DNA of 33,157 nucleotides from Candidatus Nitrosocosmicus sp. GTDB lineage: Archaea; Thermoproteota; Nitrososphaeria; Nitrososphaerales; Nitrososphaeraceae. The stretch is taken from positions 1-33,157 of the forward strand of contig QCWC01000002.1 of the NCBI GenBank assembly GCA_013114705.1, in the 5' to 3' direction. Position numbers and translations under genes: made by a program. Below, piece by piece: positions 338 through 5,688 of the stretch; the first letter of the stretch is position 1; each line of letters starts with the position of its first letter. The notes below the pieces were generated by a model that saw only the letters and a list, made by a program, of their open reading frames with translations, had not been told where the DNA came from and searched no databases.

Positions 338-574
338 AGCATCCAAACTATGAAATTATTAATTTTAACTATACATTTTGATCACAATGAATAACATAAC
401 AAAAAACTATAAAGTCGGAATATTTGCAATGTTTATTGCAGCAGCACTCATAGGTTCAGTAGTAGCCTTTGGCGATAACTATGCATATGCAGGTGGAAAG
501 AAGAAACACAATGACGCAGAGCAAGAAATCGAACAAGGTCAATCAAACGAACAGAATGCACAATGTGTATCTGG
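338..574 (+). repeat. Copy 1 of a 237-bp duplicated segment (promoter plus 5' coding part)
   Basis: This segment matches 4202-4438 without gaps at a constant offset of 3864 bp. It covers about 49 bp upstream of the ATG and roughly the first 62 codons. I count about 7 substitutions within the coding part. The similarity stops abruptly after the codons for CVSG. The start of both copies reads close to ATCCAAACTATGA, and both carry TATACATTTTGAT just before the ATG. Confidence 0.9.
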
Positions 575-656
575 AACATTCTCATTAATTGACTGTAACA
601 ACATAGGCCTAGACCTCCAATTCCAAAACGGCAATATTGCCGCAGGACAGCAATAA
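387..656 (+). CDS. Small secreted protein, constant N-terminus/variable tail family, copy 1
   Basis: This protein of 89 residues has unknown function and is probably exported. A hydrophobic segment (FAMFIAAALIGSVVAF) ends in AYA before GGKKK, a good Sec signal-peptidase site, leaving a mature peptide of about 53 residues. The mature part begins with a basic GGKKKH stretch and continues into a Glu/Gln-rich stretch. It has two cysteines ten residues apart (CVSG and CNN) that could form a disulfide, and it ends AAGQQ. ATG at 387 is preferred over the in-frame TTG at 378 because the paralogue at 4251 shares this ATG. An AT-rich box near 355-365 would place the RNA start close to the ATG. Export and family membership look solid; the role is unknown. 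Confidence 0.8.
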   Translation: MNNITKNYKVGIFAMFIAAALIGSVVAFGDNYAYAGGKKKHNDAEQEIEQGQSNEQNAQCVSGTFSLIDCNNIGLDLQFQNGNIAAGQQ

Positions 657-1461
657 ACTCTTTTTATTTTTTTAAGTTTCTAATAATTAATCTGTTCTTT
701 GGACTGTATATTTCAACTTGATAGTTCAAAATCATGAACTTGAATTTTTTTTAACCCCTAAATAACTATTAATAGTAATACTTTATGCTCATACGAAAAG
801 CTTGAAATTTAAGATTGCTTATTTATTTACCTGTCAGTTGATTCGCTAATCATTTAAAGGCAGTTGGCGGTCCAACCGTAAAGTCTATTATAAGGGGTTC
901 TATACAAAATTACAAAATTGGATTGCCCTTGGGTGATTTGATTTACTAAATGCTTTTAGGAACGAAACATGGTCTTGCGTTTCCAAATTTACTATTTGTA
1001 TATCCACAGCGTCACTGTATGGAGGGCTTACGTGAATCCAAACTTATTTGCGAGTAACACTATCTATCTTGTAAAGGTCGTTACCTTCATTGTTATGGTT
1101 TATGTTTTCTTCTACTAATTTCAATCTTCTCTGATAATGGGCCACAACAAAACAATAATTTACTCTAATTGACGATATATTAGATATTGTTAGAATATCG
1201 ATAAGACGGTAAGGCCTAGATCCAATGTCATTCATATTCTATATATCAAACTAGTTAATTCAATTGAAAAATCAAATACAATGTAATCATTACTGTACTA
1301 AGTATTGAGATAATTATTCGAGTGGGCTAAACTAATACATCTGAATCTTGTTTACCACTATTTGATCATTTTTGGTGATTGCCAATAAAGAATAATCAAT
1401 CCAAAAAAAGAGTGAAAATAGAAATCGAATTTTTTTTTAATTCTGTATCTTTAGTTCTTTC
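657..1461. other. Intergenic stretch, about 800 bp, no convincing gene
   Basis: Past the T-tract I see no supported gene. A 63-codon minus-strand frame at 1044-1235 has no TATA box at the right distance, no Shine-Dalgarno and no recognisable domain, so it is not called. A weak 5-bp stem (GTTGG...CCAAC) lies near 863-876. The region may hold decayed sequence. Confidence 0.4.
661..674 (+). terminator. T-tract terminator after copy 1
   Basis: A T-rich run (TTTTTATTTTTTTAAG) begins 5 nt after the stop codon at 654-656. Archaeal RNA polymerase terminates at such U-tracts without needing a hairpin. Assigned from position and composition only. Confidence 0.5.
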
Positions 1462-2145
1462 TTAAGTCACTGTCACGCTTCCAGTCATCCAAGGATGCAA
1501 TATGCATATGTAATTATAGGATCCAGGTTTTTCAAATGTTACACTGAATGTATTTCCTGAACCAGGATATTCTTGTTCAAATCCATTTGGTAAGAACCAT
1601 CCTGAATTAACATATTTTTCTGTTCCTGTCAAAGTATAGTTAGCATTTGGAGTCATGAAATTTACATTATCTGATGAATCAATTACAACCGGATTAAAAG
1701 TGCGCGCATTGACAACCACAATAGTATTCATCCCGTCTTCGCCAGGTATTAGTATCGGCTCATTATTAGATCCTGGTGGGAGAGCGGTGAATTCAGTTGT
1801 ATTTGAGATACTCATAGGTGAAACTACACCTGCAGTTTTATTTCCATCAAAGATAAAGGTAACAGTGTGAGGTTCGCCTACAGTTGTTGGATTATACCAT
1901 GTTACAGTTTGACCCACTCGAACTTCCACATTCTCGGGGATAAATGCCGTCAACGGAGCAGTACCGTTTCCTCCTCCTGCAGCTATTTTCACGGGTTCGC
2001 TTTCTTGTGTTTGATTTGAAGTCGATGCTAATGCTACTTTTGTAGGTATGCCGTCTACTGAGAGAATTGCTAGGATTGTTACTAGTGTCAACCCTGAGAT
2101 GATTATTGTCATTGATGTCGATGCTTTTGCCATCTTCAAATGCAT
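1462..2145 (-). CDS. Exported blue-copper (cupredoxin) protein
   Basis: This is a predicted extracytoplasmic type-1 copper protein of the plastocyanin/azurin fold. A signal-anchor or signal peptide (hydrophobic about residues 12-30, ALA about 38-40) is followed by a cupredoxin domain from about residue 65 to the end. The ligands are visible: His93 in EPHTVTF, then Cys214, His217 and Met220 in CILHPWM. About 110 residues separate His93 from the Cys loop, longer than a minimal plastocyanin, so a large insertion is present. Ammonia-oxidising archaea use many such proteins as electron carriers in place of cytochrome c, so a periplasmic electron-transfer role is likely. A TATA-like box near 2161-2169 would favour the internal ATG at 2133 (MAKAST) as the true start. 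Confidence 0.88.
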   Translation of the reverse strand: MHLKMAKASTSMTIIISGLTLVTILAILSVDGIPTKVALASTSNQTQESEPVKIAAGGGNGTAPLTAFIPENVEVRVGQTVTWYNPTTVGEPHTVTFIFDGNKTAGVVSPMSISNTTEFTALPPGSNNEPILIPGEDGMNTIVVVNARTFNPVVIDSSDNVNFMTPNANYTLTGTEKYVNSGWFLPNGFEQEYPGSGNTFSVTFEKPGSYNYICILHPWMTGSVTVT

Positions 2146-2412
2146 TTGTATTTACTATATGATATACTTTTTCTTGGTATGTTATTATTGACATGAAATA
2201 TGCTATCCTTATTGTACTTATTATAACCTCTCAAACCTAATTTGTCACATTCTCGCCAAGTAAATTTATTCCAAAATATTTCGGCTAGTCCTATAAAAGG
2301 AATATAAAATAGATATAAGGTTGCTATTTTCGGCTGTTCAATTTAGTTTCTGGAAAATAGAAATGATCTTGTAACCTAATTGAAATCAAATCCTTTATTG
2401 ACTATCATAAAA

Positions 2413-2423
2413 TATTTTTATAT
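2413..2423 (+). promoter_or_regulatory. TATA box for the Cys-rich secreted peptide
   Basis: The sequence TATTTTTATAT is centred about 26 nt before the ATG at 2445. That spacing puts the transcription start at or next to the start codon, so the message is probably leaderless. Confidence 0.6.
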
Positions 2424-2444
2424 GACTTTGACTATAGGTCGATA

Positions 2445-2696
2445 ATGGATTTTAGATTAGGGATGATGGCAATTGTGATGGTGGTTACTTCCTTGACTTT
2501 GGCTCCTACATTAGTGATGAATCAATCAGCAGAAGCAAATCATTATTGTACTGATTACAAGGGTAAATCCAAAGATTGGATAGAAGGGTGTAAACAAGGT
2601 TGGTATGATCATGATCATTGTTGGGGATATTATCCAGGGAAAGGCGATTACGCTAGAGGATACGCAGTCGGTTGGGACAAGGGAAGCTGCAGATAG
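2445..2696 (+). CDS. Small Cys-rich secreted protein
   Basis: An 83-residue protein of unknown function. Residues 1-31 form a signal peptide with a hydrophobic core and a SAEA cleavage site before NHYC. The mature part of about 52 residues has four cysteines (35, 49, 59, 82), enough for two disulfides. It is rich in Gly, Tyr, Trp and His, with an imperfect internal repeat (GCKQGW and GYAVGW) and a DHDHC segment that could bind metal. It has its own TATA box at leaderless spacing and is followed by a T-rich run near 2722-2738. It stands among other small secreted genes. A small disulfide-stabilised surface or periplasmic protein is inferred. Confidence 0.75.
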   Translation: MDFRLGMMAIVMVVTSLTLAPTLVMNQSAEANHYCTDYKGKSKDWIEGCKQGWYDHDHCWGYYPGKGDYARGYAVGWDKGSCR

Positions 2697-2972
2697 TAAT
2701 TTAGATAAGTAACATTAAATCCCTTTATTTTTATTTTTTGATTAGCATAGATAATACTATTTTTAGTAAAAAATTAGCGTCTTTTTGTTATGGATCAGAT
2801 ACAAATCTGGAATCAGTTACAATTGTGGCTGAGTTATATTATTCATTGTCATTTGAATAGAATGGATAAATTCTTGTTGAAAATTTGGTGTCTTATTGAC
2901 AGCAGATAATTTGATAAACTTATCCAAGGTTTTTCACAAGAATTAAAATAGAAAATATTTTCTTCAAAAAAT

Positions 2973-2995
2973 TTGGTTAGTTCTTAACTAACCAA
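2973..2995 (-). terminator. Perfect 10-bp hairpin between convergent genes
   Basis: TTGGTTAGTT at 2973-2982 is the exact reverse complement of AACTAACCAA at 2986-2995, with a 3-nt loop. On the minus strand the hairpin lies about 50 nt past the stop of the 3044-3337 gene and is followed by a T-run, like an intrinsic terminator. The gene at 2445 ends on the other side, so it could serve both. An operator or RNA-processing role is possible. Confidence 0.5.
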
Positions 2996-3043
2996 TTTGC
3001 TCATGAACCGTGTTTGCTCTATTTATAGAGCCTTTGGAAAGCA

Positions 3044-3337
3044 CTATCCAGTAGAATTGGCTAATAATCTGTCTAATTCGTCATCAGCAGATTGACAGAA
3101 TTCTAGTGCTTCATTGGTGTTATCATCTTCTAACTCTTGAATACAATCTTCGAGATGATCATCAACTGTTTGTAAACTCGGCTGTTCGTTGCTTGACTCG
3201 TCGTCGGTACTTGTTTGGTTAGAATTGGATTCATCAGTGCTCGCAAAGACTGAACCAACATGGTTTACTGCCATAGCGCTAACCATCAAGATAGAATAGG
3301 CCAAAATGAATATGCTTAAATACTGATTTTTGTTCAT
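3044..3337 (-). CDS. Small acidic secreted protein with a Cys pair
   Basis: A 97-residue protein of unknown function. A signal peptide spans about residues 1-32 (hydrophobic core ILAYSILMVSAMAV, cleavage after VFA). A Ser/Asn/Thr/Asp-rich linker of about 25 residues follows. The C-terminal part (about 56-94) is strongly acidic and helical, with Cys65 and Cys81 16 residues apart, a pattern that fits a disulfide-clamped helical hairpin. A perfect inverted repeat lies about 50 nt past its stop. It belongs with the other signal-peptide proteins of this region. No catalytic motif is seen. Confidence 0.7.
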   Translation of the reverse strand: MNKNQYLSIFILAYSILMVSAMAVNHVGSVFASTDESNSNQTSTDDESSNEQPSLQTVDDHLEDCIQELEDDNTNEALEFCQSADDELDRLLANSTG

Positions 3338-4201
3338 CAGGGGTTAACCTAGAGTTGGGTAATTAAGTTTTTCGTTTGTTGGTTGCTACACATCCATGTC
3401 TAATTCATTTTCTGTACTCATTTATCAAATTTACTCAATTCAACGTAAAAAATTGATAGATATTTTATCCTTGCATAAATTGTCATATTGTTTTAATGAA
3501 TTTTTGTAATATGGCTGACTAGTTGAGGTAAATGATGATCACAAACAGTCGATATCTACTTTTTATTCATTTTCTCCGGTCAATTTCTAATAGTATAGAA
3601 TCTTGCAATGTTTGATAACCTAAAGCGATCTATGAATATGGTGAATTGTATCTTCAAAGTTAGATTGACTAAAGTAATAATAGCAAATAAATGCAGTTTT
3701 ATACTTTTCTAATCCTTTGGCCATCTTCGTTCCATTTCTCACCTCATAAGAAATATCGAATATCATAACAATATTGCTATGATGCTTGGTGATTTCGGAG
3801 TAGATAAAATAAATGTACGCGAAATTGCGTATATTATATCTGAAAGTCTTTCCCTACGTATGATCAAAGAACGATCTTTGGGACATGCTGCCAAAACAAT
3901 AAGGTCCTTAATTGATAATACTATGAGAAAATTCAAAATTATTTATTGAATAAAGCGGTTACTATTTGCCCACTGAAATTTATTCTCTATATCTGAAGAA
4001 CAAGGTTCCAAGTTGATGTTCTCTCATATAGGTATACTTGCCATTGACTATTCTCAAAACCTCTAATTGTCATGATCTTGTCTTTCTGAACTTATAACAC
4101 AATATATTGTAGAAAAATAATTTGTTCATCTAATACTATTATAAGATTATTTATACGAACAAAATTCTGTAGTAAGATTTTGTTTTAATTTTACAGTATC
4201 G
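3338..4201. other. Intergenic stretch with one short ORF
   Basis: About 860 bp separate the acidic secreted gene from repeat copy 2. Apart from the short frame at 3779-3949, listed separately, I see no gene, RNA or array. The part nearest 4202 (from about 4080) is very AT-rich. Confidence 0.4.
3779..3949 (+). CDS. Possible short protein or gene remnant, 56 residues
   Basis: An ATG frame starting MMLGDFGVDK continues to TGA at 3947-3949. The frame is also open upstream to about 3713. The peptide is mixed helical and basic (INVREIAYIISESL, then KTIRSLIDNTMRKF), which looks more like real protein than random AT-rich translation and might be a degraded helix-turn-helix. No promoter is clear. I cannot name it; a remnant of a longer gene is as likely as a functional mini-protein. 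Confidence 0.3.
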   Translation: MMLGDFGVDKINVREIAYIISESLSLRMIKERSLGHAAKTIRSLIDNTMRKFKIIY

Positions 4202-4438
4202 AGTATCCAAACTATGATATGTTTAATTTAACCTATACATTTTGATTGAAATGAGTAACATAACAAAAAACTATAAAGTCGGAATATTTGCAATGTTCAT
4301 TGCAGCAGCACTTATAGGTTCAGTAGTAGCCTTTGGCGATAACTATGCATATGCAGGTGGAAAGAAGAAACACAATGACGCAGAGCAAGAAATCGAACAA
4401 GGTCAAGCCAGCGAACAGAACGCACAATGTGTATCTGG
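4202..4438 (+). repeat. Copy 2 of the duplicated promoter plus 5' coding segment
   Basis: This is the partner of 338-574 in direct orientation, gap-free over 237 bp. Most coding differences are silent or lie at the mature N-terminus (SN versus AS). Past 4438 the two genes no longer align at the DNA level, although cysteine spacing and the GQQ ending are kept. Confidence 0.9.
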
Positions 4439-4520
4439 TGAAATTACCTTTGCTTCATGCAATAACGTCAACATCCAATTGCAAGAACAATTAGGCGATT
4501 TGGCATTAGGCCAACAATAA
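4251..4520 (+). CDS. Small secreted protein, constant N-terminus/variable tail family, copy 2
   Basis: This is an 89-residue paralogue of the protein at 387-656. The signal peptide, AYA cleavage site, GGKKKHNDAEQEIEQGQ stretch and CVSG are the same. After CVSG the tail changes completely (EITFASCNNVNIQLQEQ onward) yet keeps the second cysteine at the same position, a CNN motif and the final GQQ. An in-frame TTG at 4242 is an alternative start. Function is unknown. Conserved framework with a replaced tail suggests either relaxed constraint or selected diversity in an exposed segment. Confidence 0.8.
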   Translation: MSNITKNYKVGIFAMFIAAALIGSVVAFGDNYAYAGGKKKHNDAEQEIEQGQASEQNAQCVSGEITFASCNNVNIQLQEQLGDLALGQQ

Positions 4521-4685: not shown

Positions 4686-4895
4686 TTAGGCAGATGCAGC
4701 ATACAATGCTGACTGGCTATCAAAGAATAGGGCCGATGAAGCAGATAGACATTCTTTATCGCTAATGCCATCCACTGCATAAACTTGCGGAATTACATTG
4801 TTATTGATACTGCTTAACCCTGGAGTTACTGCAATAACTGCAAATAATGTCATGGCTGCTACTAGAGTAAATCCCAAAATCAATGGACTATTCAT
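4686..4895 (-). CDS. Small secreted peptide
   Basis: A 69-residue frame starting at ATG. The hydrophobic segment (LILGFTLVAAMTLFAVIAV) and a VYA cleavage site before VDGI give a signal peptide of about 41 residues and a mature peptide of only about 28 residues with one cysteine. It ends in ALYAASA. The size and signal fit the other exported mini-proteins nearby, which is the main support. A mature peptide this short could be a secreted peptide or a tail-truncated relative. Function is unknown. Confidence 0.5.
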   Translation of the reverse strand: MNSPLILGFTLVAAMTLFAVIAVTPGLSSINNNVIPQVYAVDGISDKECLSASSALFFDSQSALYAASA

Positions 4896-5139: not shown

Positions 5140-5688
5140 GTGATACAATTTACTAACAAGCTCATAATTATGGTGGCTGCAATTTTGACCATTTCTATGA
5201 TCTCAGCTCAATCGACAATAGCTCAAGATGATGGAAGTGTAACAGGATTGAGTGCACCCAGTGAAGTGCAGACGTTTAGTTCAGCCTTTGACACATTTGT
5301 CGAATCAGACCCGCAAGGCTTTGGCGTATACGATGAAAGAGACTCTAGTACGTTTAGTCCTGGCGAAGCCATTACTTTATACATCGAGCCCGTAGGTTTT
5401 GAATACGGCACTACCGCTGAAGAAGGTGATGAATCGTTAAATACAATAAACTTCTCTGCTGACTTCATCATTTCTGACACCGAAGGTAATGTATTGACGG
5501 GCCAGCAAGGACTCCCAGTTAGTGAGATAATTTCTCATCATCAAAACAAAGAAGTGTTTATTCCATTTACTATCTCTCAAACAACACCGTTCCCAGTCGG
5601 CGACTATGTGATAACATATACTATTCATGACAGCAATTCGGGAAATAGTTTCGATATAGTCAAAGAAATCTCTATTTCAGAGGAGTAG
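5140..5688 (+). CDS. Secreted beta-sandwich-like protein
   Basis: A 182-residue protein starting at GTG. The signal peptide covers residues 1-28 (IIMVAAILTISMISA core, cleavage after TIA). The mature domain is rich in alternating beta-strand pattern: FSPGEAITLYIEPVGFEYG, then a run ending PFPVGDYVITYTIHDSNSG and a last strand DIVKEISI, typical of an Ig-like fold. It has no cysteines and no catalytic motif. An AT-rich box near 5107-5119 lies about 26 nt before the GTG, supporting leaderless expression from it. It probably acts outside the membrane, possibly in adhesion or binding; this is inference. Confidence 0.75.
   Translation: MIQFTNKLIIMVAAILTISMISAQSTIAQDDGSVTGLSAPSEVQTFSSAFDTFVESDPQGFGVYDERDSSTFSPGEAITLYIEPVGFEYGTTAEEGDESLNTINFSADFIISDTEGNVLTGQQGLPVSEIISHHQNKEVFIPFTISQTTPFPVGDYVITYTIHDSNSGNSFDIVKEISISEE

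What the first reader, a model, noticed from the sequence alone, without database searches (positions are those of the whole stretch)
338..4520. Two secreted mini-proteins: constant promoter, signal peptide and N-terminus, replaced C-terminal tails
Genes at 387 and 4251 match without gaps over 237 bp from upstream of the start through codon about 62. They then stop matching abruptly while keeping a second cysteine at the same position, a CNN motif and a GQQ ending. A sharp boundary plus preserved framework suggests recombination or selected variation in an exposed segment, as in diversified surface or toxin peptides, rather than ordinary drift. The copies are 3.9 kb apart in direct orientation, so recombination between them could delete or exchange the intervening genes.
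Basis: partly seen in the sequence, partly recalled or inferred. Interest (0 to 1): 0.72.

Follow-up and report, generated by a model that had tools for sequence, protein, structure and literature searches.

The report
Archaeal secreted repeat-protein family, partly homogenised
The two genes are single-unit members of a large, undescribed family of secreted, glutamine/asparagine-rich repeat proteins nearly confined to Nitrosocosmicus, a genus of soil archaea that lacks the usual protein shell; the family is a good candidate for the unidentified cell coat, and the 'variable tails' turn out to be old and stable while the front halves are copied between genes.

Summary
In detail: genes 387-656 and 4251-4520 match without gaps from about 47 bp upstream through codon 63, then diverge, keeping Cys70, CNN and GQQ. 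Each tail has syntenic orthologues in other Nitrosocosmicus species and evolves under purifying selection (dN/dS about 0.11). The matching half carries species identity instead of gene identity: paralogues in one genome are closer at silent sites (dS 0.42) than orthologues between genomes (0.68). So the front half is homogenised by gene conversion and the tails are stable paralogue types. A 26-bp upstream box occurs only before these genes (21 of 21 sites in four genomes).

Both genes belong to a large family: signal peptide plus 1-10 copies of a 46-residue Q/N-rich unit with a jointly kept cysteine pair (108 of 109). It is found in 15/15 Nitrosocosmicus genomes (12 to >100 units; ~34 genes in one complete genome) but in only 1 of 285 other genomes of the class, with no Pfam, NCBIfam or PDB match.

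Nitrosocosmicus lacks an S-layer and carries ~30-nm surface hairs of unknown composition. The best functional reading is a self-assembling coat or matrix protein, chaplin- or curli-like in logic but not homologous. That function is inferred; AlphaFold2 was uninformative.

The parts
340..365 (+). 26-bp upstream box of gene A (CATCCAAACTATGAAATTATTAATTT), 21 bp before ATG
   Evidence: Pattern scan: all 3 matches in the own genome and all 18 in G003/G004/G005 lie directly upstream of genes of this subfamily; reversed-pattern control 0
387..656 (+). gene A: secreted single-unit repeat protein, 89 aa (mature about 54 aa by inference)
   Evidence: syntenic orthologues G003:862392 and G004:963225
387..491 (+). 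gene A signal peptide, codons 1-35, ending AYA|GG
   Evidence: Read from the sequence (basic start, hydrophobic core, A-x-A); no signal-peptide predictor was available
387..575 (+). gene A codons 1-63: the block homogenised between paralogues within a genome
516..653 (+). gene A 46-aa repeat unit (residues 44-89; Cys60 and Cys70 = unit positions 17 and 27)
576..653 (+). gene A type-specific tail (codons 64-89), conserved in orthologues
4204..4229 (+). 26-bp upstream box of gene B (TATCCAAACTATGATATGTTTAATTT), 21 bp before ATG
4251..4520 (+). gene B: secreted single-unit repeat protein, 89 aa (mature about 54 aa by inference)
   Evidence: syntenic orthologues G003:856023 and G004:970167
4251..4355 (+). 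gene B signal peptide, codons 1-35
   Evidence: Read from the sequence
4251..4439 (+). gene B codons 1-63: homogenised block
4380..4517 (+). gene B 46-aa repeat unit
   Evidence: Profile match at C191:4380-4517, E 8.9e-22
4440..4517 (+). gene B type-specific tail, conserved in orthologues

Best explanation
SHOWN: A and B are single-unit members of a large multigene family almost confined to Nitrosocosmicus. Members carry an N-terminal signal-peptide-like segment, a short charged linker and 1-10 copies of a 46-residue unit (A-x-Q-x-I-x-Q-x-Q...QN-x-Q-[C/V]-V-S-G...[C/G]-N-N...Q-x-Q-x-N-x-G-N-N-A-x-A-Q) whose two cysteines are kept or lost together. In the A/B subfamily the segment from ATG to codon 63 (signal peptide plus first half-unit) is homogenised among copies within each genome. 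The second half-unit and the upstream flank beyond about -55 keep gene identity across species, and the tails are under purifying selection. A 26-bp upstream element marks this subfamily. INFERRED: gene conversion is the homogenising process. The proteins are exported by Sec, the cysteine pair forms an intra-unit disulfide, and the units, whether free 54-aa subunits or pre-linked tandem arrays, assemble through the conserved Q/N-rich segments into a coat or matrix on the cell surface. Paralogous tails would give chemically distinct subunits that share one export and assembly half. This coat would take the place of the S-layer that the genus lacks and could form the ~30-nm surface hairs.
For: Family and anatomy: 55 tblastn places in the own genome; 15/15 genus genomes; 46-column unit with Q3, I5, Q7, Q9, Q13, N29, G39 and Q45 nearly invariant; tandem arrays up to 10 units in 667 aa; cysteines 17 and 26/27 both present in 108 units, both absent in 38, one alone in 1 of 147; Q+N 29% against 8.7% in 14 other window proteins, and in most own-genome members the stop codon directly follows the last unit. 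Homogenisation: close-clade N-part dS 0.42 (same genome, different type), 0.68 (orthologues), 0.68 (neither); tail same type dS 0.85, dN 0.10; tail different type dN 0.38-0.39; permutation tests; two-sided boundaries; synteny. Dedicated upstream box. Coat hypothesis: restricted to the genus (15/15 inside, 1/285 outside; 1/55 other genomes of the family). PMC11559005 reports no S-layer genes and hair-like surface structures of unresolved composition. PMC12448741 reports S-layer-free cells that attach as aggregates and lack the adhesion genes of other ammonia-oxidising archaea.
Against: No localisation, expression or assembly data. AlphaFold2 was low confidence: pLDDT 47 for a three-unit protein, with two strands per unit in the top model only; pLDDT 50 for gene B, without strands. 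The Foldseek match list is therefore meaningless. No membrane or cell-wall anchor is apparent in the sequences read. The genus/S-layer correspondence is one phylogenetic event, not a set of independent correlations. One non-Nitrosocosmicus genome (G292) also carries the family; contamination or transfer was not resolved. Gene conversion is inferred from patterns, and repeated domain shuffling would leave the same trace.
Confidence: 0.55

Rival explanations
1. Diversifying or antigenic-type variation: tails are replaced or positively selected in an exposed segment.
For: Paralogues within one genome do differ sharply after codon 63 with a preserved framework.
Against: Tails fall into about seven types conserved across species; same-type dN/dS about 0.10-0.11; type effect p=0.0002, no genome effect; A and B keep their tails in syntenic positions.
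Confidence: 0.05
2. The proteins are adhesins or scaffold proteins of the extracellular polysaccharide matrix: largely disordered or glycosylated spacers that bind polysaccharide, not self-assembling fibres.
For: Long acidic Asp/Gly linkers and acidic C-terminal extensions in several members, median pI 4.4; low-confidence structure predictions; the genus forms aggregates with putative polysaccharide.
Against: Strict 46-aa spacing, near-invariant Q/I/G positions and joint keeping of the Cys pair argue for an ordered unit.
Confidence: 0.25
3. Secreted peptide effectors (bacteriocin-like or signalling peptides) with a common leader and different active tails.
For: Small, secreted, two cysteines, many paralogues, a dedicated upstream element.
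Against: The same unit occurs in tandem arrays of up to 10; tails are conserved across species instead of diversifying; no immunity or dedicated export gene is evident next to A or B, whose syntenic neighbours are a cupredoxin and other small secreted proteins.
Confidence: 0.1
4. The N-terminal identity reflects only recent duplication or DNA-level constraint, without gene conversion.
For: The upstream box is constrained: identity similar in orthologues, paralogues and unrelated pairs (0.85/0.79/0.80).
Against: Silent sites in codons 1-63 diverge freely between genomes (dS 0.68) yet are closer within a genome (0.42), while both flanks show the opposite pattern; tail types and gene order predate the species splits.
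Confidence: 0.08

Closest known systems
Chaplins of Streptomyces (ChpA-H, Pfam PF03777)
   Same: Multigene family of secreted proteins; short members with one domain (about 55 aa) and long ones with two; [quoted passage not shown] Here: 54-aa single-unit members and tandem members, with a Cys pair kept or lost together.
   Different: No PF03777 match in the genome; no sortase-type tail apparent; far more genes and up to 10 units; amyloid assembly untested; archaeal.
Curli major subunit CsgA and curlin repeats (Pfam PF07012)
   Same: Secreted Q/N-rich tandem repeats with conserved alternating N/Q positions; subunits of variable repeat number within a family (PMC10192328).
   Different: No PF07012 match; unit is 46 aa plus linker against 23 +/- 5 aa; paired cysteines; single-unit proteins; no significant internal half-repeat.
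Methanospirillum sheath protein (archaeal amyloid-like sheath)
   Same: Archaeal extracellular coat reported to be built from an amyloid-like protein (PMC10593813, PMC6242892; abstracts).
   Different: Sequence not compared here. That is a sheath around cells, whereas this is a dispersed family with dozens of genes per genome.
S-layer proteins of other ammonia-oxidising archaea
   Same: Would occupy the same place, as the main surface protein.
   Different: Opposite distribution as reported: canonical S-layer genes absent from Nitrosocosmicus (PMC11559005), this family nearly confined to it.

Membership tests
Curlin repeat (PF07012) | Profile match above the curated cut-off | tested here: not met
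   No match in long family members at E up to 10 nor in the whole own genome
Curlin repeat (PF07012) | Repeat length about 23 aa | tested here: not met
   46-aa unit; column-shuffle test for an internal half-repeat p=0.48
Curlin repeat (PF07012) | Beta-solenoid fold and amyloid polymerisation | tested here: inconclusive
   AlphaFold2 pLDDT 47-50; polymerisation not testable here
Chaplin (PF03777) | Profile match | tested here: not met
   No match in the own genome
Chaplin (PF03777) | Paired cysteines in the domain | tested here: met
   108 of 109 units with Cys17 also have Cys26/27; disulfide formation itself not tested
Chaplin (PF03777) | Short secreted single-domain members plus longer multi-domain members | tested here: met
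   89-aa single-unit genes and tandem members of 2-10 units; secretion inferred from N-terminal sequence only
Chaplin (PF03777) | Assembly into a surface amyloid film | not testable with these tools
   Needs purified protein
Hypervariable or diversifying surface antigen family | Excess nonsynonymous change or switching in the variable segment | tested here: not met
   Same-type tail dN/dS 0.10-0.11; tails conserved by type across genomes
Concerted evolution by gene conversion | Paralogues closer within a genome than orthologues between genomes, in a bounded tract | tested here: met
   N-part third-position difference 0.206 same genome against 0.282 orthologues in the close clade; both flanks opposite

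The most novel reading that the evidence does not exclude
An S-layer-free lineage of archaea builds its cell coat from a multigene set of secreted, disulfide-clipped Q/N-rich units that self-assemble into surface hairs: an archaeal counterpart of chaplins or curli of independent origin, with assembly halves kept compatible by gene conversion and tails specialised by paralogue.
Probability: 0.38. Interest if true: 0.82.

Novelty: new variant of a known kind. Interest (0 to 1): 0.6.

Why it matters
Nitrosocosmicus archaea are soil ammonia oxidisers whose outer layer lacks the S-layer of their relatives and whose surface hairs have unresolved composition (PMC11559005). This family is large, secreted-looking, almost confined to the genus and unmatched in the curated libraries searched, so it names concrete candidate genes for that coat that can be tested in existing cultures. 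It also gives a clean, quantified case in an archaeon of gene conversion homogenising half of a repeat unit while the other half stays paralogue-specific, together with an upstream element found only before one subfamily.

Tried and rejected
Positive selection or tail diversification: rejected by the orthologue test. Membership in curlin or chaplin families: not met. PDB by sequence: no convincing match; the best, E 0.005, were to low-complexity stretches. AlphaFold2 with 14- and 31-row alignments: low confidence. The Foldseek list (mostly pore-forming proteins, TM below 0.35, E above 1e-3) was dismissed as an artefact of long low-confidence hairpins. Internal half-repeat within the 46-aa unit: a shift of 26 looked suggestive by eye but no shift was significant (p=0.48). 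Family profile scan in viral contigs failed for lack of a conserved 7-10 residue stretch. G292, the one outside genome: its family contig gives one 96% match over 160 bp to G005 and otherwise about 65-80%, so contamination versus transfer stayed unresolved. Papers on Nitrosocosmicus genomes and biofilms were searched for this family without finding a description, but supplements could not be read.
Full report
WHAT WAS CHECKED. The two genes are present as described. Aligned without gaps, window genes A (387-656) and B (4251-4520) agree from about 47 bp upstream of ATG through codon 63 and then fall to about 53% DNA identity, while Cys60, Cys70, CNN and the final GQQ are kept.

WHAT FAMILY THEY BELONG TO. 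A protein search of the window's own genome gave 55 places, and all 15 genomes of the genus have matches. Named relatives are Candidatus Nitrosocosmicus; one metagenome bin is labelled Nitrosopumilus but its copies (G007) group with the same genus. A profile of the shared segment shows a 46-residue unit with near-invariant Q3, I5, Q7, Q9, Q13, N29, G39 and Q45. Members carry a signal-peptide-like N-terminus and 1 to 10 units joined by Gly/Asp-rich linkers; the longest seen here is 667 aa with 10 units. In most own-genome members the stop codon follows the last unit directly, and Q+N makes up 29% of the mature part against 8.7% in other window proteins. A and B carry one unit each; their 'tail' is the second half of that unit. 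Positions 17 and 26/27 are both Cys in 108 units, both other residues (mostly Val and Gly) in 38, and mixed in one, which is expected of a disulfide pair. There is no convincing Pfam, NCBIfam or PDB relative.

ORTHOLOGUES AGAINST PARALOGUES. The close subfamily (ATG...YAYAGG...EQNAQCVSG plus tail) was collected from the genus and divided by tail into about seven types. In the close clade (G000, G003, G004, G014) the N-part has dS 0.42 between different types in one genome, but 0.68 between genomes whether or not the type is the same. The tail has dS 0.85 and dN 0.10 for the same type between genomes (dN/dS 0.11), and dS about 1.8, dN 0.38-0.39 for different types. Label permutation on third codon positions gives a genome effect for the N-part (p=0.0006) without a type effect (p=0.60), and the reverse for the tail (genome p=0.85, type p=0.0002) (one misassigned type label was corrected). 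Beyond about -55 upstream the orthologues again win (0.71 against 0.48), so the homogenised tract has two boundaries. Gene order A - cupredoxin - small secreted genes - B - secreted genes is the same in G004 and largely the same, inverted, in G003, so A and B are syntenic orthologues and the pair has not collapsed by recombination between its copies. This is the signature of gene conversion limited to the 5' part; repeated shuffling of the 5' part would look the same.

UPSTREAM ELEMENT. All close members share a sequence like TATCCAAACTATGATATNATTAATTT about 21 bp before ATG. A whole-genome scan with up to 3 mismatches found it 3 times in the own genome and 18 times in G003, G004 and G005, always directly upstream of a member of this subfamily; the reversed-pattern control found none. 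Its identity is about the same for orthologues, paralogues and unrelated pairs, so it is constrained across species. Whether it is a promoter or a leader is not shown.

DISTRIBUTION. The unit profile matched 15/15 Nitrosocosmicus genomes and 1 of 285 others in the class; at a looser threshold 1 of 55 other genomes of the family. Unit counts run from 12 to over 100, the top values being limited by a scoring cap. Complete genome G003 has 73 units, which I count as about 34 genes. The outside genome G292 has a handful of members; contamination or transfer is open.

HOW IT MOST LIKELY WORKS. Nitrosocosmicus lacks canonical S-layer genes, has a thick wall and ~30-nm hair-like surface structures of unresolved composition (PMC11559005), attaches as aggregates and lacks the adhesion genes of S-layer-bearing relatives (PMC12448741). 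A large, secreted-looking, genus-restricted, Q/N-rich repeat family is a natural candidate for that coat. The arrangement of many short single-domain and some multi-domain secreted proteins with paired cysteines is like chaplins (PMC5618241), and the tandem Q/N-rich units recall curli (PMC10192328). Sequence tests for membership in either family fail. The structure predictions are too weak to use. Self-assembly, disulfide formation and surface location are therefore inferences. A matrix-adhesin role without fibre formation remains a serious rival.

VERDICT. Observation confirmed; recombination idea supported; diversifying-tail idea not supported. The finding leads to an undescribed protein family of more interest than the two-gene pattern itself.

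Noticed in passing
L040 1-369 (G000:C242:1-369): Contig-edge reading frame with a different tandem unit (KQNSKCEAGEDNNNSCNNISIGRQGDGNQGN...) that weakly matches the family profile; possibly a second repeat type related to this family.
   Followed up: no
window 2445-2696 (+): 83-aa secreted-looking protein rich in Cys, Trp, Tyr and His; 88% identical and syntenic in G004, not found at the G003 locus.
   Followed up: partly
window 3044-3337 (-), 4686-4895 (-), 5140-5688 (+): Three further secreted-looking proteins around gene B without a confident Pfam match, syntenic in G004, suggesting a local cluster of exported proteins.
   Followed up: partly
G003:C1 1098011, 1117941 and 2469764; G006:C88 823 and 15564: 162-aa and 159-aa family genes with identical match statistics in two or three places of one genome, suggesting very recent duplication.
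   Followed up: no
L093, L097, L105 (G012); G000:C192:3061-3282: Truncated, frameshifted or stop-containing members of the family; decaying copies or assembly errors.
   Followed up: no
L162 31-711 (G292:C22): DNA next to a family gene matches dozens of places in Nitrosocosmicus genomes at about 65-71% identity: a dispersed multi-copy element of unknown kind.
   Followed up: no
L110 (G001) and L136 (G004): Nine- and ten-unit members with similar N-termini and long acidic C-terminal extensions, the largest forms of the family seen here.
   Followed up: partly
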